From Candidatus Woesearchaeota archaeon (lineage in GTDB: Archaea; Nanobdellota; Nanobdellia; Woesearchaeales; UBA10216), in NCBI GenBank assembly GCA_016185705.1, contig JACPMZ010000014.1, forward strand, positions 1 through 39,420: a DNA stretch of 39,420 nucleotides, in the 5' to 3' direction. Both the position numbers and the translations under genes were made by a program. Below, in pieces: positions 5,586-38,517 of the stretch (within the stretch, counting starts at the first letter, position 1; each line of letters starts with the position of its first letter). The notes under the pieces are model-generated. The model made no database searches, was not told where the DNA came from, and saw only the letters and a list, made by a program, of their open reading frames with translations.

Positions 5586-6185
5586 TTACCTGAACTTAAC
5601 TACTTCTGCTTTAGCGTCCCCATTCAATTTAACATTGTATATTTCATCAGCGGTTATCCAGAAATCTGCAGCGTCTTTTTCAGGGATGTTTTCAAAAATT
5701 CTGCGTGCCACTCTTATTATTCCGATATGGCACACCACAACTGCTGTGCCGCCTTCTTTTTTTATTTCTTCAAATGCCAGCTTAGCTCTTTTCTCTGCGC
5801 TGCCGTAGCTTTCGCCTTCATGCCCTTCAGAGTTTTTGCCGGGGTGGATGTAGTTGTATTTGTCATTCTGCCTTTCTTTCCATTCTTGGCTGCCTTCCAC
5901 TTCGCTTTTTGCTTTTCCTTCCCAGCTGCCGTAGCATATTTCCCTGAGCCGTTCATCAGTCTTGACTGGTATGCCTGCAGTATCTGAAATTATATCTGCA
6001 GTTTGCTTTGCCCTTGCCAGCGGGCTGGAGTATATTGCAGTTACTCCGCGGCTTTTCAAATAATTGCCAGCGTCTTTCGCATACTTTACGCCTTCATCTG
6101 TAAGCGGATTCACGCTTGAGCAGCCTTCAAACCTGTTCTCGTCGGCAAAAATTGTCTTTCCATGCCGCACCATTATTATTTCCAT
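5586..6185 (-). CDS. Histidine phosphatase superfamily protein (phosphoglycerate-mutase-like)
   Basis: The 199-aa protein begins MEIIMVRHGKT, the RHG motif whose His forms the phosphohistidine. Later come SSPLARAKQTADII, with the conserved Arg, a Glu-containing LREICYGSWEGK segment, and VVCHIGIIR with the second catalytic His. Length and motifs match the broad-specificity phosphatase / RNase-HI-associated / cobalamin-phosphatase group rather than true glycolytic mutases. Its ATG overlaps the 3' end of the upstream GT4 by 10 nt, so the two are cotranscribed. In this glycan neighbourhood it may dephosphorylate a sugar-phosphate intermediate, which is a guess from context. Confidence 0.85.
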   Translation of the reverse strand: MEIIMVRHGKTIFADENRFEGCSSVNPLTDEGVKYAKDAGNYLKSRGVTAIYSSPLARAKQTADIISDTAGIPVKTDERLREICYGSWEGKAKSEVEGSQEWKERQNDKYNYIHPGKNSEGHEGESYGSAEKRAKLAFEEIKKEGGTAVVVCHIGIIRVARRIFENIPEKDAADFWITADEIYNVKLNGDAKAEVVKFR

Positions 6186-7297
6186 CTGAGCAGCTCCTCG
6201 TATATTTTCATGTAGCCGTCAATGTTTTCCTTTGGCAAAAATTTCTTCAGGGGCGATTTATCATATTTTTTGCGGTATATCTTCTCAACCGCCGCAGCTA
6301 TTTCTTGGCTGTTTTTTGGTGCAACCAGCAGATGCTTTCCTGAAACTACCTCAGGCAGAGAAGTTGTATTAGTCGCAATGACAGGCACTCCCAGCGCGCA
6401 TGCCTCTGCTGCCGTATACCCGAATCCTTCTGATAAACTGGGAACTACTACGCAGTCTGCTGCTTTTATGTGCTGCGGCAGCTCATTGTACGGAACAGGC
6501 TCAAGAAACAGCGCTTTGTCCGCAATGCTTAACCTGCTGACAAGCGCCTTGAGTTTTCTCAGTTTGGAAAAGTATTGCCTGTCCCTGCTTAATATGAACA
6601 CAAATTTCAGGCTGGGAATACTGATTTTGGGGATTGCTTTGACTGCGTACTCTATCCCCTTGCTTGGCCCCGGCCTTCCGTAAGTCAGGCAAACAAATTT
6701 TTTTTGCAGCCCGTATTTTTTTCTTACGCTGCCGCCGTTGTTCTTTTTTGGATTAAAATGATTGTAGTCAACTGAGTTGTATACTGCTGCTGTTTTCTCA
6801 GCCCTTTTTCCTATCCCGAGCAGCTGCTGCTTTGTTGAATTTGACACCCCGACGTATTTGTCAAACGGCAGCAGGTAAATCAGCTTTTCAAGGAATTCGT
6901 GCGCCGCTGCCTGCATGAAATTCATGTCTGTGTACTCTTTCCATTTTCCTATCCATGCCTCATGCACTGTTATTGCGCATTTTTTCCCGGCAATCTTTGA
7001 TGCAATCCACGCCGGCAAAGCTCCGTTGAACGTGGTGGTGTGAATTATGTCTGCTTTTTTTGCTTCCCTTAAAGCAGAGGGTATTGCTAAAAAGCTGAAC
7101 AAATACCTGCTCTGCATGCAGCTTATGCGCTTTATCCTGACGCCATTCAGGACTTCATTTTTTTTGGCGCCTTTCAGAAGGTGCGTTATTACGGTAACTT
7201 CGTGCTTTTTTGCCAGCCCTTCAGCAAGGTTCCTGAAAACAGTCTCAACCCCGCCGATGTGCGGATAATAGTTTTCCAGCACAAAAAGTATTTTCAT
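6176..7297 (-). CDS. GT4-family glycosyltransferase (GT-B fold)
   Basis: The 373-aa protein begins ILFVLENYYPHIGGVETVFRNLA, the typical GT4 N-terminal glycine-rich acceptor loop (GGVE). The donor half contains FVCLTYGRPGPSKGIEYAVKA and the E-x7-E motif in LSEGFGYTAAEACALGVPVIATN. It has no signal peptide; GT4 enzymes of this type work on the cytoplasmic membrane face and add sugars to a lipid-linked glycan. A TATA-like box about 25 nt upstream gives it its own promoter, and the phosphatase gene is coupled to its 3' end. It is probably one step in assembling the glycan transferred by the AglB encoded upstream on the same strand. Confidence 0.88.
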   Translation of the reverse strand: MKILFVLENYYPHIGGVETVFRNLAEGLAKKHEVTVITHLLKGAKKNEVLNGVRIKRISCMQSRYLFSFLAIPSALREAKKADIIHTTTFNGALPAWIASKIAGKKCAITVHEAWIGKWKEYTDMNFMQAAAHEFLEKLIYLLPFDKYVGVSNSTKQQLLGIGKRAEKTAAVYNSVDYNHFNPKKNNGGSVRKKYGLQKKFVCLTYGRPGPSKGIEYAVKAIPKISIPSLKFVFILSRDRQYFSKLRKLKALVSRLSIADKALFLEPVPYNELPQHIKAADCVVVPSLSEGFGYTAAEACALGVPVIATNTTSLPEVVSGKHLLVAPKNSQEIAAAVEKIYRKKYDKSPLKKFLPKENIDGYMKIYEELLRWK

Positions 7298-7330: not shown

Positions 7331-7410
7331 TTTGTGTTTTGTGGATGCCCCAGCTTCATCATCGCAATGGAGAAAAAATTCAAAAGAGATTGGCTGGGTT
7401 TTGGCAGGTG

Positions 7411-7752
7411 TCAATTCCTCTTCTTCCCGTTCCTTTCCAGCGCCATGTTTCTGACTAAGGTTTCCATGCGCTTGTCTGTGTGCCTTGTTACCCTGTATGT
7501 GTAGAACGTCGCTGCTATCAGGAACATGAAGCCCAGTATAATCAGCAGGTCCAGTTTTCTTCCTAAATTCAGGCTTTTTACAATCGGGTCAAGTATCTCA
7601 GGAAAGACTGATATCGCCGCAAAAAAAAGCGCAAACACCGCCCAGAAGCTCCATTCGGTCAGCGTGAATTCCTTTTTTTTGTAGTACAGGAACGACATGT
7701 ACAGCATGAGAGCGCTGAATGCGAGCCCGAATACCTGGATTCCAAGTGCCAT
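7411..7752 (-). CDS. DUF2304-type small membrane protein
   Basis: The 113-aa protein has three predicted membrane helices: about residues 5-24 (IQVFGLAFSALMLYMSFLYY), 34-52 (FWAVFALFFAAISVF) and 68-86 (LDLLIILGFMFLIAATFY). A basic C-tail ends ERNGKKRN. Size, helix pattern and the position beside a Dol-P-sugar-synthase-like GT2 match DUF2304 (PF10066), a family commonly found next to such enzymes and thought to be a membrane partner. It has its own TATA-like box (AACTTTAAAAAAAC on the minus strand, about 7775-7790). It is separated from the GT2 by a palindromic repeat. The biochemical role is unknown. Confidence 0.7.
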   Translation of the reverse strand: MALGIQVFGLAFSALMLYMSFLYYKKKEFTLTEWSFWAVFALFFAAISVFPEILDPIVKSLNLGRKLDLLIILGFMFLIAATFYTYRVTRHTDKRMETLVRNMALERNGKKRN

Positions 7753-7900: not shown

Positions 7901-8557
7901 CTACCTGCTGATCTTCCACCAGATCATGTTCATGGCTATCTGAATTCCGTGGAACACTGTTGTGCCTTTGTACGCATCCGTATAGATGGTTTCTATGGGC
8001 AGCTGCCTGAACCGCAGCTTGTTTTTGCCTGTTTTGGCTGCGATTTCTGATTCTATGTTGTAGTCGCTTGATATCAGGTGCAGCTTTCGGTAGGCATCAG
8101 CAGTCATTATTTTCATGCCGCATTGTGTGTCTGTTATTTTTATCCTGAACAGTTTGCTTAGCATCGCGTTAAGCACAAAGTTTCCGAACTTCTTAATCGC
8201 AGGCATGCTGGCGCTTCTCAGGTTTCTGTAGGTGAACACTACATCCGCTCCGTCAAGCTCTTTTTCAAGCCGGGGAATGTCTTCTGCCGAGTGCTGGCCG
8301 TCGCTGTCAATGAAAAGGATTGCTTCTGCGCCGTTTTTTAATGCAAATTCGCTTCCTGTGCGCATCGCAGCTCCTTTGCCGAGGTTGATGATGTGCCTTA
8401 GCACAGTAACGCCTGCTTTTTTTGCTTCCTCATATGTTCTGTCCTGCGAGCCGTCGTCCACTGCAACTATGTTTTTTGAGTGTTTTTTTACGGATTTGAC
8501 TACCGCAGCTATGTTTTTTTCTTCGTTGAATGCAGGAATAACTGCAAATGTTTTCAT
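7901..8557 (-). CDS. Dolichol-phosphate-sugar-synthase-like GT2 glycosyltransferase
   Basis: The 218-aa protein has GT2 hallmarks: FAVIPAFNEEKNIAAVV, IVAVDDGSQDRT (nucleotide-binding Asp), LFIDSDGQH (DxD metal site) and TDTQCGMKIM, the conserved box of Dol-P-mannose/glucose synthases (DPM1, AglJ/AglD-like). It has no C-terminal membrane helices. It lies 26 nt after AglB on the same strand and upstream of a DUF2304 protein. The likely reaction is transfer of a sugar from an NDP-sugar to dolichol phosphate at the cytoplasmic membrane face, giving a charged lipid for N-glycosylation. Which sugar is used cannot be told. Confidence 0.88.
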   Translation of the reverse strand: MKTFAVIPAFNEEKNIAAVVKSVKKHSKNIVAVDDGSQDRTYEEAKKAGVTVLRHIINLGKGAAMRTGSEFALKNGAEAILFIDSDGQHSAEDIPRLEKELDGADVVFTYRNLRSASMPAIKKFGNFVLNAMLSKLFRIKITDTQCGMKIMTADAYRKLHLISSDYNIESEIAAKTGKNKLRFRQLPIETIYTDAYKGTTVFHGIQIAMNMIWWKISR

Positions 8558-8583: not shown

Positions 8584-11500
8584 TTATTTTATGTTCGTAA
8601 TTTTGATTTTGAAGTAAATTGTCCGGTTGTACAGCGGATGCCCCGGCTCTGTGTATCCTTTTTCAGGCGGCACTTCTATTATTTTCTCTTCTTCCAGCTT
8701 TGCGCCGATAAGCCCTTCTTCAAATCCCGCGATGACTGCGCCCTGCCCAAGTCTGAACGTGAACGGCCTGTAGGAAAAGCTTTCGTTAAACGCTGTTTCA
8801 GAGGTAACGTTTTCTTCCTGTATTGACGTGTCAAACACTGTGCCGTCATCAAAGTAGCCGATGTAGTTCAGCGTTACTTCGTCTCCTGAAGCAGCAGCAG
8901 TCTTGACTTCAACTGGTTTCAGTTCATCCACAATGTTCGTCTGCTTTCCTTCCCAGTCCACTTCCCATACCCATACGTTTGTTCCTGTGAATCCGTATTG
9001 CTGTGTAAGAAGCTTGAAGTGCTTGAGCCCGTGCCCTTTCAGGTAGTACAGCCGCGAGAATATGCCGTCAACAATGTCAGGGCTTCCGGCTATTCTTACA
9101 AAGCCGCTTCCTGACGGCGCAAGCACAATTCCGAGATTCTGGGGGATGGTGTTGTTCGTGTACTCTTTTCTTACAATTCCTTCTGCTGTCAGGTAGCTGA
9201 AGGATAGCGGGTGCAAATTGCCCTCAGGAGTTGGATACCACGCATCATAGCTGTTTGTGTCTATCCTCAGCCCGTCTCCGCATGTTATAATCTCTCCGGC
9301 ATTGCATCCTTCCACTCCTGCAAACCCGTTCCAGGGCCCTATCCATGCGTCTGCTGCCCCGTCGTCATCTCCAATTGATTGCACCTGCTCATAAATGCCA
9401 ATTGCTTCCTGCTCGCTTATCCCGAATTTGTCCTTCATGTACTGCACTGCCTCTCCTTCTGTGCTGTCCATTGTTGCCTTGAATATGTCTGCTTTTGTGA
9501 AGTTCCATGATCCGAAGTGGCCCCATACGCCTGATTTTCCCACCATGTCTTCTGATGCTATAACGAATGCCTGCGGCGGACTGCAATGGGTTCTTTCAAG
9601 AATATCATCTGCCTGCTCGTCTGTCAGTCCCTCATTAAGCAGCTGCTGCCTTGCCTCTTCCCTGCCCATGAGTATTATTTTTTTCACCAGCAGTATTCCC
9701 CTCACGTCATTCGGGTCATCCTCCACGATTTTTGACAGGTTTTCCTGTGCTGTTACTGCGCCGCAGTCAAGCATCCTGAGTATGCCTATTGCCTCCGTTT
9801 CATCGTGTGTGCTCAGCATGCGGCCTACCCAGTGCGCCTGCATTGTCAGCTGTGTTGTGCCATCGAAAGTAACAGGCCTGTCAGCAAGCGCTTTGAAATG
9901 GTGCCCGAAGTCCCACCACGAGGTTATTACAGCGTTTTCTTCAGAATTGTCTCTGATTGCGGTTAGGGAGCTATACCATGCGTCATTGACCAACGGAATA
10001 TCGTTTTGGACTACTGTTTTTGATTCCTTTACAATATCTCCGTTGAACGTCAGTCCGGGAAACACCAGTATGAGGAAGGGAAATATTGCTGCCATAAATA
10101 CTATCTTGGGCACTTTGAATTCTCTGGCTGCAAAGCTGCTTATCCACCCTGAAGCCAGCCCGAATGCCACTCCGAATGCTATGCTGAATGCCGGCACCAC
10201 CAGCAGCACGAATCTTATTCCTTTTGTTACTGAGTACAGCGTGGCAATGAGCCACGTACTTAGTATTGCTACATAAAATATGTCCTTCATTATTTTTTCT
10301 GTGTCGCTTTTTTTTCTGAATGCTGCATAAGCTGCACGGGCTATGAGGAGCATTATGCCGAGCAGGGCTATGTAGAACAGCGAGTTTCCAAGCTGCTGTA
10401 TTGCAGTCTGCACTGTTCCTTCATTCAGCTCTGCCACTGTTCTAAGCACATTTGGTGCTGCGCTCGCAACGACAGGCTCTTTTATGCTTCTGAAGCCCAG
10501 AGATGCAAACGGCGTTAGCGCAAATCGCGAAATGCTTGAAAAAAGCCCAAAGAAAACAATTCCTGCAATGTAGTATGCTGCTATTGCGGTTGCAGCCCTC
10601 CTGATTGCTTTGTCCTGCAGCGCTTTTAAGTTTCCTGCCAGAGCAATCTTGTACAGTGCAAAAAGGCCCAGTGTGCCAAGCGATGCTGCCAGCAGAAAGT
10701 CAAGTATCCACCACCAGCCGCCCCATGTAAGGCTGTAAAGGAGGGTTGCAAACGCGCTTGACGCTGCAAGTATGATTCTCAGCCAGGTTTTTTGTGCTGA
10801 GAATGCCTCTATGAACAGCCACAGTATAAGTACAGAAAAGAATATCGCTATCGCATCTGAGTCTGCATGCCCGAACTGTGTCCTGCTGAGGAGGGATGCG
10901 TGCACGCTAACCATGGTTGCCGCAAAAAAAGCTGCTATGTTTCCGGCAATTCTCTTCGCAATCATGAACACTACGATTGTTGTCAGCGCTGAAATGAATA
11001 CCGGAAAGAACATCACAGCCCTGGCCAGCTCTAAATCATTGTTGAATATTTTTCCGGCTTTGTAAAACCATGCTATCAGTTTTGGGTAGAACGTGTCTTC
11101 AGGCGATATGCCGCGGCCTTGCGGAGCAAGCTGGTAGCTGTCCCACACATATCCGTTGACTATTTTGTCTTCCTGGCTGCCTGTTTCAACAATGTTCCTT
11201 GCGTACCGCCACCAGTAGTAGGGGTCAATGTCCGGCATGTAGCCCCTCCCCTGCTCGTCCTGGAAAAACGCCTTTAATTGCGCAGATGTCACTTCCACCT
11301 GCTGCTCAATGTTGGCTGTCTGCCCTGCAAACTGCCCTGTCCTGAAAGTGTAGAGTCCGGATTCGTGCGCTTTTTGCAGCTCCTCAGCTATGCGTGTTTC
11401 CCTGTTCTTTTCAGGCAGGTTGGGATACTGCTGGCTTACAAAAGTTGAAATGTCGTTCCTTATTGTAACGTCTATGCTGTTCCTGGCCCATCCTTCCGTG

Positions 11501-12015
11501 AATGCGAGGTCTCCTGCCTGCATCCTTATGCTGAATCCAAGCCAGACGCTGACAATTATCCCGATTGCCAAAAAAAGCGTAACGTAGTGTTTCTGCAGAA
11601 ACTTCATTGCAGCTTTGACATCAACCGCATCCTCGCCGCTGCTGCTTTTCCCGCCTTTGAACACGCCTTTTAAGCCGGTTACTGCTTTGCCTGCAATTTC
11701 GCTGCTCTTAACGCCTTTATTCTGGCTGAATATTCCCTTGATTTTTCCAAAGTCTATCTGTATGCTGTCGTCCTTGTCAGCATCATTGGTTTTTGCAGCA
11801 TCTGCAGTTTTTTCGCTGCCGCTTTCTCTGTTGTCGCTTCCAATTTTTTTGGTTTCATTATCGCTTCCGGTATTTTTGGTTTCAGATGGGGAGGCAGCTG
11901 CCTTCTGTCTCCTGAACAGATTTGTGATTTTGCTCAGGTCAATCTCAATGTCATCGTCCTTTTTGTCTTCAACAGCCTTGATTTTGTCTCCGTAATCCTT
12001 ATCCGGTTCAGCCAT
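8584..12015 (-). CDS. aglB: STT3/AglB oligosaccharyltransferase with C-terminal FKBP domain
   Basis: The 1143-aa protein transfers lipid-linked glycans to Asn of N-X-S/T sequons on the outer membrane face. Residues 1-140 are a charged cytoplasmic extension with a repeated motif (DDDIEIDLSKITNLF near 20-34, DDSIQIDFGKIKGIF near 82-96). The first TM helix is about 144-162. IDPYYWWRYARN (263-274) is in the first external loop, and a second acidic motif, GHADSD, is at 382-387. Multi-pass TMs run to about 655. The external catalytic domain has WWDFG (700-704) and a DK-type motif EDMVGK (822-827). Residues about 1042-1143 form an FKBP-type peptidyl-prolyl isomerase: LNYIGYFDDGTVFDTS, FRLGQGAVIAGFEEGL and PEKGYTEPG keep the Tyr, Phe-Asp, Val-Ile and Tyr of the active pocket. 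A TATA box lies about 26 nt upstream of ATG 12015. It probably forms an operon with the downstream GT2. Confidence 0.93.
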   Translation of the reverse strand: MAEPDKDYGDKIKAVEDKKDDDIEIDLSKITNLFRRQKAAASPSETKNTGSDNETKKIGSDNRESGSEKTADAAKTNDADKDDSIQIDFGKIKGIFSQNKGVKSSEIAGKAVTGLKGVFKGGKSSSGEDAVDVKAAMKFLQKHYVTLFLAIGIIVSVWLGFSIRMQAGDLAFTEGWARNSIDVTIRNDISTFVSQQYPNLPEKNRETRIAEELQKAHESGLYTFRTGQFAGQTANIEQQVEVTSAQLKAFFQDEQGRGYMPDIDPYYWWRYARNIVETGSQEDKIVNGYVWDSYQLAPQGRGISPEDTFYPKLIAWFYKAGKIFNNDLELARAVMFFPVFISALTTIVVFMIAKRIAGNIAAFFAATMVSVHASLLSRTQFGHADSDAIAIFFSVLILWLFIEAFSAQKTWLRIILAASSAFATLLYSLTWGGWWWILDFLLAASLGTLGLFALYKIALAGNLKALQDKAIRRAATAIAAYYIAGIVFFGLFSSISRFALTPFASLGFRSIKEPVVASAAPNVLRTVAELNEGTVQTAIQQLGNSLFYIALLGIMLLIARAAYAAFRKKSDTEKIMKDIFYVAILSTWLIATLYSVTKGIRFVLLVVPAFSIAFGVAFGLASGWISSFAAREFKVPKIVFMAAIFPFLILVFPGLTFNGDIVKESKTVVQNDIPLVNDAWYSSLTAIRDNSEENAVITSWWDFGHHFKALADRPVTFDGTTQLTMQAHWVGRMLSTHDETEAIGILRMLDCGAVTAQENLSKIVEDDPNDVRGILLVKKIILMGREEARQQLLNEGLTDEQADDILERTHCSPPQAFVIASEDMVGKSGVWGHFGSWNFTKADIFKATMDSTEGEAVQYMKDKFGISEQEAIGIYEQVQSIGDDDGAADAWIGPWNGFAGVEGCNAGEIITCGDGLRIDTNSYDAWYPTPEGNLHPLSFSYLTAEGIVRKEYTNNTIPQNLGIVLAPSGSGFVRIAGSPDIVDGIFSRLYYLKGHGLKHFKLLTQQYGFTGTNVWVWEVDWEGKQTNIVDELKPVEVKTAAASGDEVTLNYIGYFDDGTVFDTSIQEENVTSETAFNESFSYRPFTFRLGQGAVIAGFEEGLIGAKLEEEKIIEVPPEKGYTEPGHPLYNRTIYFKIKITNIK

Positions 12016-12057: not shown

Positions 12058-13164
12058 TCAAAACAACAGCTTTCCCGACATCAGCAATAATCTCGGCTCC
12101 TGCACCAGCAGTTTGAATGCAAACTTCCTCGGCTCATCCCTGTCAAAGGATTCCAGAATTTTTTTGTTTTTGTAGCTGCCGAATATTTTTATTAGTTTGT
12201 TGTAGTCCTTGTCTGAAAACCTGTTCATTATTTTCCTCATAATAAGCGAGAGCCACAAATCCCTTCCCATTTTTGCCTTCCATAATTTCTCGTAATCTTT
12301 GCCGGTTGCCGCTGCCTCGGCTACAGCTGTTGCAGCAATAAGGCTCTGGTTTATGCCGCCGAGCGTAGGCGCTTTGACCATTGCTGCTGCATCCCCTGCC
12401 AGTAAAACTTTTCCTTTCTGCGTCTGCAATTTCGGGTTGTACAATGGTATGGGCCCTGCCTGGTGCCCGATTATCCTTTCTTTGTAATCCTTTCCGACTG
12501 CTGCTGTCATGAACTCGTCAAAGTAGATGTTTGCGTGCTTTTCAGCTGCAATTCCCGCCCTTACAACGTTTTTGCTTTCCGGAACAGTCCACGCTATGCC
12601 TTTCTCAGACGGGTAAAACCTTATTGCATTGTCATTCTCCATCTTCGCAGTAACCTGCAATCCAATGTAGAATTTGCGCTCGCCGAAAATTCCGGCTGCT
12701 TTCGCAACTTCGCTCCTCGGCCCGTCTGCTCCCAAGAGCCAGTCGCTTTCCACTTTGACTTCGCTGCCCAAATTTTTGTTTCTTATGGTTGCTGTAACTT
12801 TCCCATTCTGCTGAAGCGAAATGAAGCGGTGATTAACATAGTACCTGGCGCCTGCCCCCTTGGCCATGGAGGCAATGTGCTGGTCCATCGCTGCTCTGTT
12901 GACAACGATGTCGTTTTTCAGCTTAACCTCAACCTCGCTTTTGTCAGGGGCAATGATGTGCGCTTTCTCAATGCGAGTGGCAACTATCTCATCAGGCAAC
13001 CTGAACTGCCGCGAAAAGACATCCTCGGTAATCACGCCTGTGCATGCCCACGGTATTCCTATTACTGGCTGCTCCTCATACACAGAAACGTCATGCCCCT
13101 GCTTGGCAAGCAGGTATGCGCTGTAATTGCCTGCAGGCCCTGCTCCGATGACAGTTATTTTCAT
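12058..13164 (-). CDS. Geranylgeranyl reductase-family FAD oxidoreductase
   Basis: The 368-aa protein starts ITVIGAGPAGNYSAYLLAKQG, the dinucleotide-binding GxGxxG fold of FAD enzymes, followed by VSVYEE ending in the ribose-binding Glu. IPWACTGVI, LLGADGPRSEVAKAAG (the GD motif region) and VLLAGDAAAMVKAPTLGGI, the FAD-diphosphate site, match the geranylgeranyl/digeranylgeranylglycerophospholipid reductase family. In archaea these saturate isoprenoid chains of membrane lipids or of dolichol. Next to aglB and a Dol-P-sugar synthase, a role in reducing the polyprenol carrier is attractive but inferred. A TATA box lies 25 nt upstream of the ATG (GTTTATATTGG on the plus strand at 13187). Confidence 0.85.
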   Translation of the reverse strand: MKITVIGAGPAGNYSAYLLAKQGHDVSVYEEQPVIGIPWACTGVITEDVFSRQFRLPDEIVATRIEKAHIIAPDKSEVEVKLKNDIVVNRAAMDQHIASMAKGAGARYYVNHRFISLQQNGKVTATIRNKNLGSEVKVESDWLLGADGPRSEVAKAAGIFGERKFYIGLQVTAKMENDNAIRFYPSEKGIAWTVPESKNVVRAGIAAEKHANIYFDEFMTAAVGKDYKERIIGHQAGPIPLYNPKLQTQKGKVLLAGDAAAMVKAPTLGGINQSLIAATAVAEAAATGKDYEKLWKAKMGRDLWLSLIMRKIMNRFSDKDYNKLIKIFGSYKNKKILESFDRDEPRKFAFKLLVQEPRLLLMSGKLLF

Positions 13165-29793: not shown

Positions 29794-29848
29794 TATAGCG
29801 TTGTGTTTGTCAGCGTTTCCCCCAAAAGGGCAAGAGGTGTTCATAATA

Positions 29849-32800
29849 ATGTTGCATCAAAAGAGGAGTGAGCTTTTACGATTGTTTGCAATTGCTGCCT
29901 TACTTGCTGTGAGTGTAGGCGTAATTCTCGTCTATTCAGCGCAGGTTGACACCAGCGGGAAGCAGGGTTCTCCCATATTTGTCAATTCAAGCATTAACAC
30001 TTCTGTTAACTTCACCATAACAGTTTCTGCAGGAAGCAACACTGTAAGGTATATAGGCATTAACAAGCCCGCCAGTTATTCTGACATAAACTGTGCAGAC
30101 CGTCTGCCTGTTGACAGCGCAGGCAACGCTTTTACCTGCACCGAGGTCAGTGACACGCTTGTGAAGTACACGAGCAATGACGGCGTGACAGCAGGCAACA
30201 GCGTTGATGTAAAAATCAATGCCACCGCAGGAGCTGGTTCAGGCAACGTCAGCTTCACAATCAACACTTTTGAGGACGCTTCCGGAACAGCTGCGCAGAA
30301 CAACACCATAGTCAATGTTACTGTTGACGATGAAGCTCCTGTTGTAAAATCAATAAATGTAACGTCAGGCACGCTTGTCCTCACGAATGACACCATTGCA
30401 AACGGCACCGGCCGCACATTTGTTGCGAAAAACGCGCTTGTGATTAACGCAACTGTCACGAGCAACCTCGCTCCTGTTCGTTCTGTAGCAGGCGGCGTAA
30501 AGCTCTTCTATAACGTAAGCAATACCACTGTAAGTTGGGATAATCAGTCCCTCGCTCTGCACCCGACCGGCACAGCATCTTCTATTAGCATGAGCAACAA
30601 AACAGTTATTGACGAGTCAAACGGGCTCTTTAATGCAACTATTCCTGTTTCAGACATTAGCAACGGCAGCGTTGTATTCTTCACAATATATGCGAGCGAT
30701 ACAATCGGCAATGAAAACGTAACAAACAGCTCAAGCTATGAGGGCGTTCCGATATACACCTTCAACCTTACGGTTGACGATGCTGCTCCGACAGCTTCTG
30801 CTCCGACTGTGGGGTTGCTTAACAATATTATTGACGATATTTTTGATGCTTCGCAGGATAATATAACAACTTCCTCGCAGGTTCACAACTTCAGCATTGA
30901 CGTGATAGACCACGGCGGCTCCGGAATTCATGCAGTATGGATAAATGTTTCAGGAACCCACACCCTGATGAGTCTGGTGAATGGAAACAGGTATAATGCC
31001 AGCGGCAGCGTAGACGAGCTGGGCGGAGAAGCAGGCGATGCCAACCTGACAATTTACTTCATTACCAATGACAGCGTTGGAAACCAGGACAATGCCCTTT
31101 CGTTGAGTCTCCTTGTTGACGATAACAACTTTACCTTCACGGTAACTACAACCAACCTCACCAACAATTATACTGTCCGCAACACCACCATGGTTAACAT
31201 CACTGCTGACATCTTCGCTAATCTTAATATCAGCGGAGGCAACGCAACCATTCACGGTCCCAACAACAGAAAGTTAAATATGACTTTGCTTGAAACAACC
31301 ACAAGCTGGGGAACAGTTGGCAACACAACCGGCTTCCAGAACATTTACAGAAGCAGATGGTACTCTTCAGGACAGCTGCCCCTGCCGAATGTTGATAACA
31401 GCACCTCATCAAACACCTCTCTGGCTGAACTTGGCTGCGAGCTGCAGGGCATAGGAGACCAGGCAGGCGATGACGGCGATACCTGCTCTATTCAGATTAC
31501 GTGGAGCGACATATTCGGCAGGACAAACTCGTCAAACATTACTATCACAGTGGACAATGTTGCCCCTATTGTAGTAAACACCACTGTCATGAACATCACT
31601 GACCTTACGCCAGGCAGTTTTGTTACGCGCTCAACAGCTTTCCTCAACTTTTCAGTGAATGCCTACAACAATATAGAGAATGTATCGCTTCACAACAGCA
31701 CCCGGCAGGCAGAGTTCCTCAATGTATCCCTGATGAATGCCGGCGGCGCTACCAACTTCAGCGTTCAGGTGCAGCCGAGAGTTCACTGCCTTGGTGAAGG
31801 TGTCTGCGATATCAACATTACAGCTACTGACCAGGCATTGCAGCAGAATGTTTCTGTTGCAAAGCTCACTCTTATAGTTGACGACACGCCTCCTGGCATT
31901 TCTGATGCGGCAAACTTCCTATTTGGCATAAGAATCGGCAACAGGTCTGCTGCCAACATCAACAGCAGCACGCCTGGCGACGGCATTGCCAGGAACATTA
32001 CCGGCTATGAGGACGCTGTTTTCAGGGGCTTAACGCTTATTGATGGCGGCGCGGTTGTGCATACAGCAGCAATACTCAACCTTACCATTAACGCTACAGA
32101 CACTACTTCCAACATTACATTGCTGTATGCTGGCAATTCGTCAAGCACAAACTTCACGAGGATAGCAGAGACAGCTACTGAAGGCAATTTCTGGAGGGCC
32201 CAGAACAGCTCTTACGAGCTTTGCGGCCTTGCCTCAACCGATACTGTGGAAGTTGAATGCATACTCACCTTTACTGCGAAGGACAATGTATCGCTTGTCA
32301 ATGCATCCACCACGCTTACTTTGCGGCTTGACAGCCTTCCTCCGAGGGTTGCGAACTTGACTACAGACCTCTCGCTAAAGCACCGCGTAGGCGGCATCAG
32401 CAACTACATCAACTTTTCAGTAAACATTACTGACGCCAACCTGGCAGCGTTCAACGTGTCCATAGCCAACAGCAGCTCAATGCAGATGAACAGGTCCCAG
32501 AACCTTAATTCCAACGCAACGTCTGTAACTTACTGGGTCGTTACTACTTTGAATGACCTTGGCTGCTCGGAGAATTCCAACTGCACTGTAAGGGTAGTTG
32601 CCAACGATTCAATCAATAACGTCAATGATTCAGTTGCAATAGTGCTTCTTTCCGATGCTTCAGGAATGGCTATCAGCAACCGCACCTTTGGAGCTGTGTT
32701 CAACACAGCCAGCCCGCTTATAACTGTTAACACAAGCGCTTCAGCCCAGTGCAGGTATTCCAGCAGCGGTGTTACCAATTACTCGCAGATGGCCACTCAG

Positions 32801-33304
32801 TTTGACTCTGAAGGAACAAGGCACAACTCGTTCACAGTATCCAACCTGCTTGACGATGACAACTATGAGTATGATGTGTCCTGCGTTGACCTTGACGGCG
32901 AAAACGCGGTGAGCAGCACTGCCAAGTGGGATGTGGACACGACTTCATTGTGGAACATAACGATAGGCGCAACCGGCTCAAACGGCGTTAAGTACGACTA
33001 CTTCACCTCTGCCAACAAGTTTTACACGTTCACGCTGCCGAACACGAACGTGCTGACATCAACATCGCACAACAACGCAGCAGACACCTATAATGTTACA
33101 AATGTGCTTGAGTCTGTCATATCAGCTAACTCAGCAGGCGCTAACAATAACCTGAGCGTGCTGTTCGCTTACGACAGAAGTGCGAACACTTGGACATCCT
33201 ACATTCCGGGCAGGGCCAGCAACGACTTCACGAATTTCACTGCCGACACAAATGACTACTACGTAAACCTGACTGTTGCAAATGAAAGGATAGAGATCGG
33301 CTAA
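29849..33304 (+). CDS. Giant N-glycosylated secreted surface protein
   Basis: The protein is 1151 aa from ATG 29849, preceded by GAGGTGTT at SD distance; the frame is open 5' to 29801. An N-terminal hydrophobic segment (LLRLFAIAALLAVSVGVILVYSA) is a signal peptide or anchor. The rest is very rich in Asn, Ser and Thr, with several dozen N-X-S/T sequons. It is built of repeated Ig-like beta-sandwich modules, marked by recurring VDDxAP/VDNVAP/VDDTPP junctions near the starts of modules. There is no C-terminal TM and no PGF domain. It is probably a main substrate of the AglB in this window and a surface-layer or adhesin component. Duplicated TATA boxes and a palindrome at the start site suggest regulated, strong expression. 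Confidence 0.8.
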   Translation: MLHQKRSELLRLFAIAALLAVSVGVILVYSAQVDTSGKQGSPIFVNSSINTSVNFTITVSAGSNTVRYIGINKPASYSDINCADRLPVDSAGNAFTCTEVSDTLVKYTSNDGVTAGNSVDVKINATAGAGSGNVSFTINTFEDASGTAAQNNTIVNVTVDDEAPVVKSINVTSGTLVLTNDTIANGTGRTFVAKNALVINATVTSNLAPVRSVAGGVKLFYNVSNTTVSWDNQSLALHPTGTASSISMSNKTVIDESNGLFNATIPVSDISNGSVVFFTIYASDTIGNENVTNSSSYEGVPIYTFNLTVDDAAPTASAPTVGLLNNIIDDIFDASQDNITTSSQVHNFSIDVIDHGGSGIHAVWINVSGTHTLMSLVNGNRYNASGSVDELGGEAGDANLTIYFITNDSVGNQDNALSLSLLVDDNNFTFTVTTTNLTNNYTVRNTTMVNITADIFANLNISGGNATIHGPNNRKLNMTLLETTTSWGTVGNTTGFQNIYRSRWYSSGQLPLPNVDNSTSSNTSLAELGCELQGIGDQAGDDGDTCSIQITWSDIFGRTNSSNITITVDNVAPIVVNTTVMNITDLTPGSFVTRSTAFLNFSVNAYNNIENVSLHNSTRQAEFLNVSLMNAGGATNFSVQVQPRVHCLGEGVCDINITATDQALQQNVSVAKLTLIVDDTPPGISDAANFLFGIRIGNRSAANINSSTPGDGIARNITGYEDAVFRGLTLIDGGAVVHTAAILNLTINATDTTSNITLLYAGNSSSTNFTRIAETATEGNFWRAQNSSYELCGLASTDTVEVECILTFTAKDNVSLVNASTTLTLRLDSLPPRVANLTTDLSLKHRVGGISNYINFSVNITDANLAAFNVSIANSSSMQMNRSQNLNSNATSVTYWVVTTLNDLGCSENSNCTVRVVANDSINNVNDSVAIVLLSDASGMAISNRTFGAVFNTASPLITVNTSASAQCRYSSSGVTNYSQMATQFDSEGTRHNSFTVSNLLDDDNYEYDVSCVDLDGENAVSSTAKWDVDTTSLWNITIGATGSNGVKYDYFTSANKFYTFTLPNTNVLTSTSHNNAADTYNVTNVLESVISANSAGANNNLSVLFAYDRSANTWTSYIPGRASNDFTNFTADTNDYYVNLTVANERIEIG

Positions 33305-35270: not shown

Positions 35271-35320
35271 ATCGGCGATTGCTAAAGATGCAGGGGGAAC
35301 TGTGTTTATCCCAAAGCAAA

Positions 35321-35330
35321 ATAATTTAAA
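35321..35330 (+). promoter_or_regulatory. TATA-like box for the subtilase gene
   Basis: ATAATTTAAA ends 22 nt before ATG 35353. It supports that leaderless start over upstream in-frame codons. Confidence 0.5.
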
Positions 35331-35352
35331 CACGTCCTCCATACAAGTCTGC

Positions 35353-38300
35353 ATGAAAAGGGTGTTCCTTGTTTTTCTATTGGTTCTGCTGCTGGCTGTT
35401 TCAGCTGCTCCAAAAACTGATGAGAAGCAGACTGTAATAATCTATTTCAATGATGCTCCGCAGCTTATATCTGCGCAGCATGTTTCCGCTGCAACAGCGT
35501 CTACTGCGCAGCAGTTGGCTTATGCTGGTGCTGTTGACATTAAGCGCAGCTTTCTGACCATGAACGGAATGGTTGCAGAGGTGGATTCAAAAACACTGAA
35601 GCTGCTGAAATCAAATCCTAACATAGAATTGTACGAAGACGCCCTGGTGCGCACTTTTCTCTCAGATACGAAGGACATAGTGAATGCATCGCGCGCATGG
35701 GCTCTGGCGCATAACGAAACCAATCTCACAGGCAACACAGAGACTGTGTGCGTAATAGACTCAGGCGTGAATGAGACCCATGACGACCTTTCAGTAATTG
35801 ATGAGTACTGTTTCTGCAATCTTGCCAACCTCGATGCCTCAAAATGCTGTCCAGGCGGCAATGCTGAGGAAGCTGACGGTTCTGACGACTACGGCCACGG
35901 CACCCATGTTGCAGGCATTGTGGCATCATCCAACCTGACTTTTCGCGGAGTAGCGCCTGATGCGCACATAATTTCAGTTAAGGTAACTAATTCTTCAGGA
36001 ACAGGCACAAGGGCAGATATTGTTTCTGCGATTGACTGGTGCGTTAACATCTCCTCAGCGCATAATGTTTCTGTAATAACTATGAGTCTTGGCGAGGGCC
36101 TGTACTCAGGTTACTGCGATTCCGAGAGCGGCGTATCTTCGTATGCACGCCCGATAAACAACGCCACTGAGCTTAACATTACAGTGGTGGCTGCTACAGC
36201 CAACTCAGCTGAGACTACAAAAATTTCTGCCCCTGCCTGCATCCAGAACGTGACCGCTGTTGGCTCTTCCACAAAAGCAGACGCTGTCTCCAGTTTCAGC
36301 AACCGCAACAGCATAACTGATTTGTTTGCTCCAGGCAGCAGCATTCGCTCGTTAAGGTGGTCTCCTGACACCTGCCTGGCAGGGTGCAGCTGCAATGACG
36401 CAAACACAATGACATGCTCCGGCACTTCAATGTCCGCTCCGCATGCTGCAGGCGCAGCTGCCCTGCTGCATCAGTTCATGAAAGTTTCCAAGAACATTAC
36501 TGCCAATTCTACTTTGATAATTGACCACCTCAACAGAACAGGCGTTGACATTGACGATTCAGGCGGCAGCGGCTTTACGTTTAAGCGCATCAGCATTTAC
36601 GATGCAATCATAGAGCTTGACAATGACCTTCCGAACATCACTTTTGTCGCTCCCACTCCGGATAATGGCTCCACCACTGCAGACAACAGCAGCATCTTCA
36701 TAAATATCACAAGCTCGGAAGTGCTTGCAGTTGCTTCCCTTGAGTGGAGCAACGGCTCAACTGCCAACTACTCCATGGACGGCTCAGGCCAGCACTGGTC
36801 TGTTAATTTCTCAACCCCTGTTTTCGGCAACGTTACATACAGGATATTCGCAAATGACACCGCAGGCAACATAGCTGTTACTGACGTTCGCTCGCTGAAC
36901 ATTGAGGTGCTTGGGCCGAATGCATCTGTTGTAATCCCTGCTGCCGGCACCAACATCTCAGGCAGCTTGCTAATTAATGCTTCTGTCAACAGCTCAAACA
37001 CCGTAGCAGACGTTAACCTGACTGTTTTCAGCAGCACTGGCAATGCTTCAGGGTTCATCCAGATGTCCAGAAACTCAGGCAGCAGCGCTCAGGGATACTA
37101 CAACGCAACGCTTGACACCTCCGCTTTTGTAGACGGAAGCTACAATTTAAGCGTTAACGCAACCGACGCAGGCGGAAACATTACAATCTCCTCCAACGTG
37201 TCAGTGGTTTTTGACAACACCCCTCCTAACGCATCAATTGACATTCCGCTCAACGGCTCCGCGGTAACTGATTTGTTCCTCATAAATGGCTCAGCCAACG
37301 ACACCACTGCAGGCATTCTTAACGTTAGCTTCAGAATAATTAATTCAATTGCAGATTCCGGCTGGCTTTATGCAGACTTAAGCTCCGGCTCAACTGCTGA
37401 AGGGTACTGGAACGCTTCTTTCAACGCATCAACGCTGCCCATCGGAACTTACAACATTACTCTGAACGCAACCGACTTTGCTTACAACCAGAACCTTTCA
37501 AACGCTTCATTCATAGAAATCAACGGCACGTTTGAGGGCGTTAATTCCTGCGCTTCTTTGACTGTTTCCAACGCAACTTACAGGCTGTTGCAGAATGTTT
37601 CAGCAGCCGCTACTTGCTTAACAGTTGCTGCGCATAACATAACATTGGATTGCGATGCTTATCAGGTGGAATACGGCTCCTCGGCTTCCGGCTTTGGAAT
37701 TGACGTAAGCGCAGTAAACGACACAAAAATACAAAATTGCATTGTAGCCAAGTCAGGATTTTCCGGCTCTGACAACTACGGAATTTACGTTGCCAAGGAC
37801 GCTAACGGCACGATTGTAAGCAACAACACGATTGCTACAAACGGCAGCTCCAGAAATTTCGGCATTTTTCTCAACAGCAGCCATTACAGCAATGTTACAG
37901 GCAATAACATTACTGTCAGGGGCAGCGCTGACTCCAACTTTGCCATTTACCTGAAGGATTCGCTTTACGCTAATCTTTCATCCAACCTGATTTTCACTTA
38001 TGCAAACCTTTCCTCTGCAATTCAGATTCAGAACAGCAACTCATCAGCCATAGCTGGAAACACCATTACAGTTACTGGGAATGATAGCTATGCGGTCAGC
38101 ATAGTCAACATAGACAGCGTTCCCTCCAATAACACAATTTATAACAATATCTTTAATACTACTGCTGCAGCAGTCAACATTACTTCTCCGCTTCAGGCCA
38201 ACAACTTCAGCATTGCCTTAACTGCTGCAGCAAACATTGTTGGCAAATCAAAAATTGGAGGCAACTATTATGATAACTCCACTGTTGGCGGCCAGGCAGC

Positions 38301-38517
38301 TTATTCTCTGTCATGCGCTGATTCTGACGAGGACAGCATTTGCGACTCTGCATTGAATCATGCCGGCAACAGCACTGACTTTTATCCGCTTACGCTGACA
38401 ACTCCTTCATCAGGCGGGGGCTCTCCAACAACTGCTGCGTCTTCAGGAGGCGGTGGAGGAGGAGGCGGCGGCGGCAGCCAAACAGCAGCTGACAGCAGCT
38501 TTTCGCAGGCGCGCTAA
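35353..38517 (+). CDS. Secreted subtilisin-like (S8) protease with Ig-like and beta-helix domains
   Basis: The protein is 1054 aa from ATG 35353. It has a signal peptide (VFLVFLLVLLLAVSAA), an I9-type propeptide (about 26-100, VIIYFND...MNGMVAEVD) and an S8 catalytic domain with Asp136 in VIDSGVN, His182 in GHGTHVAG, oxyanion Asn near 284 (VAATANSA) and Ser359 in GTSMSAPH. It carries many Cys and several sequons. Ig-like, Asn-rich repeats follow (about 430-740, with FVAPTPDNGS and FDNTPPNASI junctions). A NosD-type right-handed beta-helix comes next (about 770-960, IVSNNTI, VTGNNITV, IAGNTITV), then a poly-Gly linker. It ends at TAA 38515-38517 without an anchor. The same frame continues after this stop as a PGF-pre-PGF plus TM domain, so the intended product was probably longer. 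Confidence 0.85.
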   Translation: MKRVFLVFLLVLLLAVSAAPKTDEKQTVIIYFNDAPQLISAQHVSAATASTAQQLAYAGAVDIKRSFLTMNGMVAEVDSKTLKLLKSNPNIELYEDALVRTFLSDTKDIVNASRAWALAHNETNLTGNTETVCVIDSGVNETHDDLSVIDEYCFCNLANLDASKCCPGGNAEEADGSDDYGHGTHVAGIVASSNLTFRGVAPDAHIISVKVTNSSGTGTRADIVSAIDWCVNISSAHNVSVITMSLGEGLYSGYCDSESGVSSYARPINNATELNITVVAATANSAETTKISAPACIQNVTAVGSSTKADAVSSFSNRNSITDLFAPGSSIRSLRWSPDTCLAGCSCNDANTMTCSGTSMSAPHAAGAAALLHQFMKVSKNITANSTLIIDHLNRTGVDIDDSGGSGFTFKRISIYDAIIELDNDLPNITFVAPTPDNGSTTADNSSIFINITSSEVLAVASLEWSNGSTANYSMDGSGQHWSVNFSTPVFGNVTYRIFANDTAGNIAVTDVRSLNIEVLGPNASVVIPAAGTNISGSLLINASVNSSNTVADVNLTVFSSTGNASGFIQMSRNSGSSAQGYYNATLDTSAFVDGSYNLSVNATDAGGNITISSNVSVVFDNTPPNASIDIPLNGSAVTDLFLINGSANDTTAGILNVSFRIINSIADSGWLYADLSSGSTAEGYWNASFNASTLPIGTYNITLNATDFAYNQNLSNASFIEINGTFEGVNSCASLTVSNATYRLLQNVSAAATCLTVAAHNITLDCDAYQVEYGSSASGFGIDVSAVNDTKIQNCIVAKSGFSGSDNYGIYVAKDANGTIVSNNTIATNGSSRNFGIFLNSSHYSNVTGNNITVRGSADSNFAIYLKDSLYANLSSNLIFTYANLSSAIQIQNSNSSAIAGNTITVTGNDSYAVSIVNIDSVPSNNTIYNNIFNTTAAAVNITSPLQANNFSIALTAAANIVGKSKIGGNYYDNSTVGGQAAYSLSCADSDEDSICDSALNHAGNSTDFYPLTLTTPSSGGGSPTTAASSGGGGGGGGGGSQTAADSSFSQAR
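38515..38517 (+). other. In-frame TAA separating protease from its anchor domain
   Basis: The stop lies between the poly-Gly linker (ending SFSQAR) and a tract WDVVEAGVPATFSV that begins a PGF-pre-PGF-type domain in the same frame with no other interruption for 204 codons. One sense codon here would join them into a protein of 1259 aa. Confidence 0.9.

What the first reader, a model, noticed from the sequence alone, without database searches (positions are those of the whole stretch)
8584..12015. AglB oligosaccharyltransferase fused to an FKBP prolyl isomerase
After a full STT3 domain (WWDFG, EDMVGK) the last ~100 residues are an FKBP domain with the main pocket residues kept (LNYIGYFDDGTVFD, VIAGFEEGL, KGYTEPG). 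It would sit on the outer face beside the catalytic site. Eukaryotic OST uses separate oxidoreductase subunits to slow folding near sequons; a built-in isomerase/chaperone would be an archaeal counterpart that couples glycosylation to folding.
Basis: partly seen in the sequence, partly recalled or inferred. Interest (0 to 1): 0.7.

Follow-up and report, generated by a model that had tools for sequence, protein, structure and literature searches.

The report
Glycosylation enzyme fused to prolyl isomerase
In a lineage of tiny uncultured archaea (Woesearchaeota), the enzyme that attaches sugars to exported proteins carries a built-in FKBP-type domain, with its proline-flipping pocket preserved, so sugar attachment and protein folding may be handled by one machine.

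Summary
The ORF at 8584-12015 (minus strand, 1143 aa) is a full archaeal oligosaccharyltransferase (OST; STT3/AglB) followed, after a linker of about 17 residues, by an FKBP domain (PF00254, E=1.1e-16; 4.4e-19 for the isolated tail). It is not an assembly error. The same fusion occurs in 26 further loci from other genomes and in 22 of 166 sampled genomes of the order, but in 0 of 113 from the rest of the class. The fused FKBP domains form one clade (SH-aLRT 99), are as conserved as the OST core, and keep the PPIase pocket. The STT3 tree needs four changes, which fits an old fusion lost several times; relatives end bluntly or in a sequon-rich linear tail. The locus is a conserved N-glycosylation cluster. 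Fused FKBPs carry 3.3 times the expected N-X-S/T sequons, whereas free cytoplasmic FKBPs show no excess, so the domain looks extracytoplasmic. The best reading is an outward-facing prolyl isomerase tethered to the OST, without the chaperone (IF) domain of other archaeal FKBPs. Catalysis and pocket orientation are untested. The eukaryotic parallel, FKBP11 beside OST-A, has a buried active site, so a docking role remains open. Papers searched do not describe this fusion.

The parts
8584..12015 (-). AglB/STT3-FKBP fusion ORF, 1143 aa (P0001)
   Evidence: no internal stop
11626..12015 (-). Residues 1-130: disordered, presumably cytoplasmic N-terminal extension with two I-D-[FL]-x-K-I motifs (residues 25-33, 87-95)
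   Evidence: pLDDT <40; motif count
10063..11283 (-). STT3 membrane domain (PF02516, residues 245-651) with DXD motifs D262/D264 and D385/D387 and TIXE-type TVAE 526-529
8956..10023 (-). STT3 C-terminal globular domain (residues 665-1020), WWDFG 700-704, DK/MI-position segment 824-831
   Evidence: foldseek to PglB and AglB
8902..8952 (-). Linker, residues 1022-1038
   Evidence: all-pairs identity 0.30 against 0.42-0.46 in the flanking domains
8599..8901 (-). FKBP domain (PF00254, residues 1039-1139), no insert-in-flap domain
8620..8628 (-). Conserved sequon N1130-R-T before the last strand of the FKBP domain (24 of 27 fused tails)
8803..8811 (-). Second recurrent sequon N1069-V-T in the FKBP insert loop (18 of 27 fused tails)
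12058..13164 (-). Geranylgeranyl-reductase-family flavoprotein, upstream neighbour (polyprenol/dolichol reduction inferred)
   Evidence: TIGR02032 E=1.7e-46, just above cut-off; synteny
7901..8557 (-). GT2 glycosyltransferase, polyprenyl-phosphate sugar synthase/AglJ-like, 26 bp downstream
   Evidence: PF00535; NF058614 and TIGR04182 below cut-off; synteny
7411..7752 (-). DUF2304 small protein
   Evidence: PF10066 E=1.5e-20; synteny
6176..7297 (-). GT4 glycosyltransferase
   Evidence: PF00534 E=1.1e-29; synteny

Best explanation
The gene encodes a single-subunit archaeal oligosaccharyltransferase whose extracytoplasmic end is extended by a compact FKBP-type prolyl isomerase domain. The fusion most likely arose once in the Woesearchaeal lineage, was inherited with the OST, and was lost in several branches. 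As acceptor chains emerge outside the cell and are held by the OST, the tethered FKBP most likely binds and isomerises Xaa-Pro bonds in the same chains, keeping them unfolded or helping them fold around new glycans. The OST itself would supply the substrate holding that free archaeal FKBPs get from their insert-in-flap domain. Shown here: the fusion, its clustering by descent, the conserved pocket, the fold prediction and the glycosylation-gene context. Inferred: outward topology (family knowledge plus the sequon pattern), PPIase activity, action on OST substrates, and substitution for the IF domain.
For: Domain hits. Fusion in 26 further loci and in 22 of 166 order genomes. One FKBP clade, SH-aLRT 99; FKBP identity tracks OST-core identity (r=0.72) at equal level (0.45 against 0.42). 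Pocket positions counting the window: Y26, D37, F99 in 27/27; Y82 26/27; H87 25/27; F36 and I56 24/27; W59 is F/L, as F is in the archaeal FKBP 1ix5. Confident FKBP fold, pLDDT 80-95, FKBP13 TM 0.81. N-glycosylation gene cluster in fused and unfused relatives. Sequons 69 against 21.2+-3.9 expected in fused FKBPs, 14 against 18.3 in free ones. In the window's genome the only other FKBP is a cytoplasmic-looking 228-aa protein, so the fused domain is its only predicted outer FKBP.
Against: No activity or structure data. The orientation of FKBP relative to the OST is not resolved (pTM 0.75 for the C-terminal half). There is no IF chaperone domain, and FKBP12-like domains without one fold proteins poorly (PMC11013033). 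Close relatives lack the domain. One fused domain (L052) has lost the pocket. Prolines are not enriched near sequons in two exported proteins. Eukaryotic FKBP11 at OST-A has a buried active site (PMC12804085).
Confidence: 0.58

Rival explanations
1. The FKBP domain is a non-catalytic docking module that recruits a partner (translocase, chaperone or S-layer assembly factor) to the OST, as FKBP11 does at the eukaryotic translocon.
For: FKBP11 beside OST-A acts as an adaptor with a buried nominal active site (PMC12804085); L052 keeps the domain with a lost pocket; no IF domain.
Against: Seven pocket positions are kept in 24-27 of 27 divergent sequences, which a pure docking role need not preserve, though peptide binding without catalysis could.
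Confidence: 0.22
2. The C-terminal appendage is mainly a glycan-bearing cap of the OST; FKBP is one of several interchangeable scaffolds, the linear sequon-rich tails of relatives being another.
For: Sequons exceed shuffles 3.3-fold in fused FKBPs and 3.2-fold in the linear tails, but only 1.4-fold in the OST globular domain, and are depleted in loop 1 and the membrane part of the OST.
Against: It does not explain conservation of the PPIase pocket; one clade has no appendage at all; the main sequon position (HPLGNKT) may be partly structural.
Confidence: 0.13
3. The domain is a near-neutral passenger kept by descent.
For: Lost in several branches without apparent replacement.
Against: As conserved as the OST core over deep divergence.
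Confidence: 0.06
4. Assembly error or frameshift joining two genes.
For: None in this window; L057 and L058 show that frame breaks occur in assemblies of relatives.
Against: 26 further loci with the same junction.
Confidence: 0.01

Closest known systems
Archaeal AglB / bacterial PglB / eukaryotic STT3 single-subunit OSTs
   Same: STT3 domain, two DXD motifs, TIXE-type TVAE, WWDFG, globular C-terminal domain; foldseek to PglB 6gxc (E 1.1e-18) and AfAglB 7e9s
   Different: Extra FKBP domain after the globular domain; M-xx-K-xxx-W at the DK/MI site; long N-terminal extension
Archaeal FKBPs (1ix5, 3pr9/3prb) and SlyD
   Same: Best sequence hit 1ix5; conserved pocket; 'HPL' motif before the last strand
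   Different: No insert-in-flap domain; fused to an OST; sequon Asn in place of the usual Gly of HPLAGK
FKBP13/FKBP2 (ER-lumenal, single FKBP domain)
   Same: Compact FKBP12-like fold, TM 0.81 to 4nnr; non-cytosolic (own knowledge)
   Different: Free soluble protein, not part of an OST
FKBP11 at the eukaryotic secretory translocon
   Same: An FKBP placed beside OST-A on the lumenal side (PMC12804085)
   Different: Separate recruited protein that helps dock CCDC134, with a buried nominal active site; not fused
Ost3/Ost6 (TUSC3/MAGT1) OST subunits
   Same: A folding-related module next to the OST active site (established knowledge)
   Different: Thioredoxin-fold oxidoreductases; the FKBP tail has no cysteine

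Membership tests
STT3/AglB/PglB oligosaccharyltransferase | STT3 domain profile above the curated cut-off | tested here: met
   PF02516 158.5 bits against 24.5
STT3/AglB/PglB oligosaccharyltransferase | Two DXD motifs, TIXE/SVSE and WWDYG motifs | tested here: met
   D262/D264, D385/D387, TVAE 526-529 and WWDFG 700-704, essentially invariant in 61 sequences
STT3/AglB/PglB oligosaccharyltransferase | DK or MI motif | tested here: inconclusive
   M824-xx-K827-xxx-W831 is invariant but fits neither canonical form exactly
STT3/AglB/PglB oligosaccharyltransferase | 13 membrane helices plus a globular domain with the OST fold | tested here: inconclusive
   AF2 model matches PglB and AglB with prob 1.00; membrane helices were not counted
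STT3/AglB/PglB oligosaccharyltransferase | Glycan transfer to N-X-S/T | not testable with these tools
   needs an assay
FKBP prolyl isomerase | FKBP_C profile above cut-off and FKBP fold | tested here: met
   61.4 bits against 21.1; FKBP13 TM 0.81
FKBP prolyl isomerase | Pocket residues equivalent to Y26, F36, D37, I56, Y82, H87, F99 | tested here: met
   All present in the window; W59 is F
FKBP prolyl isomerase | PPIase activity and FK506 binding | not testable with these tools
   needs an assay
Archaeal/SlyD FKBP with insert-in-flap chaperone domain | IF domain inserted in the flap | tested here: not met
   No IF-sized insert in the fused FKBPs; free FKBPs of related genomes have it
Ost3/Ost6-type OST subunit | Thioredoxin fold with CxxC | tested here: not met
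   No cysteine in residues 1022-1143; the fold is FKBP

The most novel reading that the evidence does not exclude
Woesearchaeal OSTs form a built-in glycosylation-and-folding unit: the C-terminus is a swappable, self-glycosylated appendage, and in the ancestral form it is an FKBP that isomerises prolines of the very chain being glycosylated, a prokaryotic one-protein version of the OST-FKBP neighbourhood at the eukaryotic translocon.
Probability: 0.28. Interest if true: 0.78.

Novelty: new variant of a known kind. Interest (0 to 1): 0.62.

Why it matters
How N-glycosylation is coordinated with folding outside the cell is largely unknown in archaea, whose OSTs are single-subunit enzymes. A conserved covalent OST-PPIase fusion is gene-architecture evidence that the two processes are linked, and because it is one polypeptide the link can be tested by deleting or mutating one domain. 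It gives a prokaryotic counterpart to FKBP11 beside OST-A. The repeated loss of the domain, with linear sequon-rich tails in some relatives, provides natural comparisons.

Tried and rejected
Assembly error or frameshift: rejected (26 further loci). Fusion as a replacement of a secreted free FKBP: not supported; free FKBPs of fused and unfused genomes are mostly cytoplasmic-looking, only L121 and L123 have an obvious membrane or lipoprotein signal (judged from hydropathy and by eye). Proline enrichment around sequons in two sequon-dense exported proteins: not found. Conserved N1130 sequon as proof of self-glycosylation: not accepted, since Asn at this turn also occurs in many FKBP12-type domains (own knowledge). 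Third FKBP_C hit of the genome (C8): lies in a histidyl-tRNA-synthetase-like ORF (recognised by eye) and is below cut-off, treated as spurious. Pocket orientation: not obtainable; no coordinates are returned and pTM is 0.75-0.77. Literature searches for an OST-FKBP fusion found none, but only open-licence papers are held.

Full report
CHECK OF THE OBSERVATION. The gene is the minus-strand ORF 8584..12015, 1143 aa. Pfam finds STT3 (PF02516) at residues 245-651, E=4.8e-46, and FKBP_C (PF00254) at 1039-1139, E=1.1e-16 (4.4e-19 for the isolated tail), far above the curated cut-offs. The best solved relatives by sequence are human STT3A for the OST part and the archaeal FKBP 1ix5 for the tail. The genome (1.23 Mb, 95.6% complete) has one detected STT3 gene, this one.

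NOT AN ARTEFACT. A scan of one genome per species returned 65 related loci, nearly all Woesearchaeota. After the OST core ends (...W1021), their tails fall into three kinds: 26 have an FKBP tail of about 120 aa in the same register (27 with the window; in L057 the OST frame is broken further upstream); about 24 have a 30-75 aa linear Asn/Ser/Thr-rich tail; about a dozen stop within a few residues. A phylum sample of 279 genomes shows a contiguous OST-C-domain plus FKBP match in 22 of 166 genomes of the window's order (8 of 11 in its own family, 9 of 13 in a second family, the rest in four more) and in 0 of 113 genomes from the rest of the class (counted by hand from the table; the phylum sample held only this class).

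HISTORY. On a tree of the OST part (61 sequences, FKBP columns left out), FKBP presence needs four changes and is strongly clustered (0 of 500 shuffles as low). The fused FKBP domains form one clade against free FKBPs of the same order (SH-aLRT 99; few columns, quick tree), and several of their sub-clades recur in the OST tree. FKBP identity between pairs tracks OST-core identity (r=0.72) at the same level (0.45 against 0.42). The simplest reading is one fusion, co-inheritance, and repeated loss; horizontal spread of the whole fused gene is not excluded.

ANATOMY. OST: D262/D264, D385/D387, TVAE 526-529 and WWDFG 700-704 are invariant or nearly so in 61 sequences, so the catalytic and sequon-binding machinery described for AfAglB (PMC8342417) looks intact; the DK/MI position reads M-xx-K-xxx-W. 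FKBP: the positions equivalent to FKBP12 Y26, F36, D37, I56, Y82, H87 and F99 are all present in the window and kept in 24-27 of 27 domains, with W59 replaced by F or L; one relative, L052, has a degraded pocket. There is no insert-in-flap domain, unlike the free FKBPs of these genomes. AlphaFold2 gives pLDDT 83.6 and pTM 0.77 for the whole protein, with the FKBP part at 80-95, and 87.8/0.75 for the C-terminal half: well-formed domains, orientation not fixed. Foldseek on the whole model finds both PglB/AglB/STT3 and FKBP13 (TM 0.81).

CONTEXT. Downstream in the same orientation lie a GT2 (polyprenyl-phosphate sugar synthase/AglJ-like), DUF2304 and a GT4; upstream is a geranylgeranyl-reductase-family flavoprotein that may saturate the polyprenol carrier. 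This order recurs in many relatives, with and without the FKBP tail, so the tail was gained or lost at one orthologous N-glycosylation locus.

TOPOLOGY AND SEQUONS. The STT3 globular domain faces outward in this family (established knowledge), which puts the FKBP outside. The sequon pattern agrees: N-X-S/T is depleted in the OST loop 1 and membrane regions, 1.4-fold over shuffles in the globular domain, 3.3-fold in fused FKBPs (69 against 21.2+-3.9) and 3.2-fold in the linear tails (81 against 25.5+-4.3), with no excess in free cytoplasmic FKBPs (14 against 18.3). Two positions recur, N1130 (24 of 27) and N1069 (18 of 27). Two exported proteins in the window show a comparable excess (2.5- and 2.8-fold). 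Related sequences are not independent, so these excesses are weaker than their standard deviations suggest. Whether the tails are glycosylated is not known.

FKBP INVENTORY. In the window's genome the other FKBP above cut-off is a 228-aa protein without an obvious signal sequence. In 21 other fused genomes the fused domain is the only detected FKBP in three (G023, G037, G122). Free FKBPs in fused and unfused genomes mostly look cytoplasmic.

MECHANISM. Most likely the FKBP is a tethered extracytoplasmic prolyl isomerase acting on chains held by the OST. FKBP12-type domains without a chaperone domain are poor folding catalysts (PMC11013033), so the tether to the OST may replace that function (inference). 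The main rival is docking: FKBP11, an FKBP beside human OST-A, helps recruit CCDC134 and has its nominal active site buried (PMC12804085). A second rival is a glycan-bearing cap. Prolines are not enriched near sequons in the window's two sequon-dense exported proteins, which gives no support to a direct sequon-proline link.

NOVELTY AND LIMITS. The held papers do not mention such a fusion, but most subscription journals are absent, and database annotations may already list the architecture. Both parts are known families, so this is a new variant of a known kind. Other phyla were not surveyed. The related genomes are almost all metagenome assemblies, and no member is known here to have been studied experimentally.

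Noticed in passing
window 11626-12015 (residues 1-130 of the fusion): Disordered N-terminal extension with a repeated motif I-D-[FL]-x-K-I; 33 of 61 relatives have one to three copies, with or without FKBP. Possibly a docking motif.
   Followed up: partly
L019-L021, L023, L024, L026, L028-L034, L040 and others, C-terminus of AglB: Unfused relatives end in a 30-75 aa linear tail with 3.2 times the expected N-X-S/T sequons (81 against 25.5), a possible self-glycosylated OST tail.
   Followed up: partly
window 29801-33304 and 35302-38517: Two large exported-looking proteins, the second a subtilase (S8), with 77 and 67 sequons, 2.5-2.8 times shuffles: likely heavily N-glycosylated.
   Followed up: partly
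L057 around 7346-7386 and L058 around 8296-8370: In both loci the AglB frame is broken at about the same point (near residue 790 of the window protein): a frame change in L057, a short duplicated stretch in L058. Probably sequence errors or decay.
   Followed up: partly
L025 and L035: Closely related AglB-FKBP genes in genomes labelled Aenigmatarchaeota and Woesearchaeota: mislabelled bin, contamination or transfer.
   Followed up: no
L036 5902-9090 and 9193-12321: Two AglB genes in tandem, both without FKBP.
   Followed up: no
L052 1642-4752: Fused FKBP domain with a degraded pocket (Y82 to P, F36 to L): a natural pocket-less variant.
   Followed up: partly
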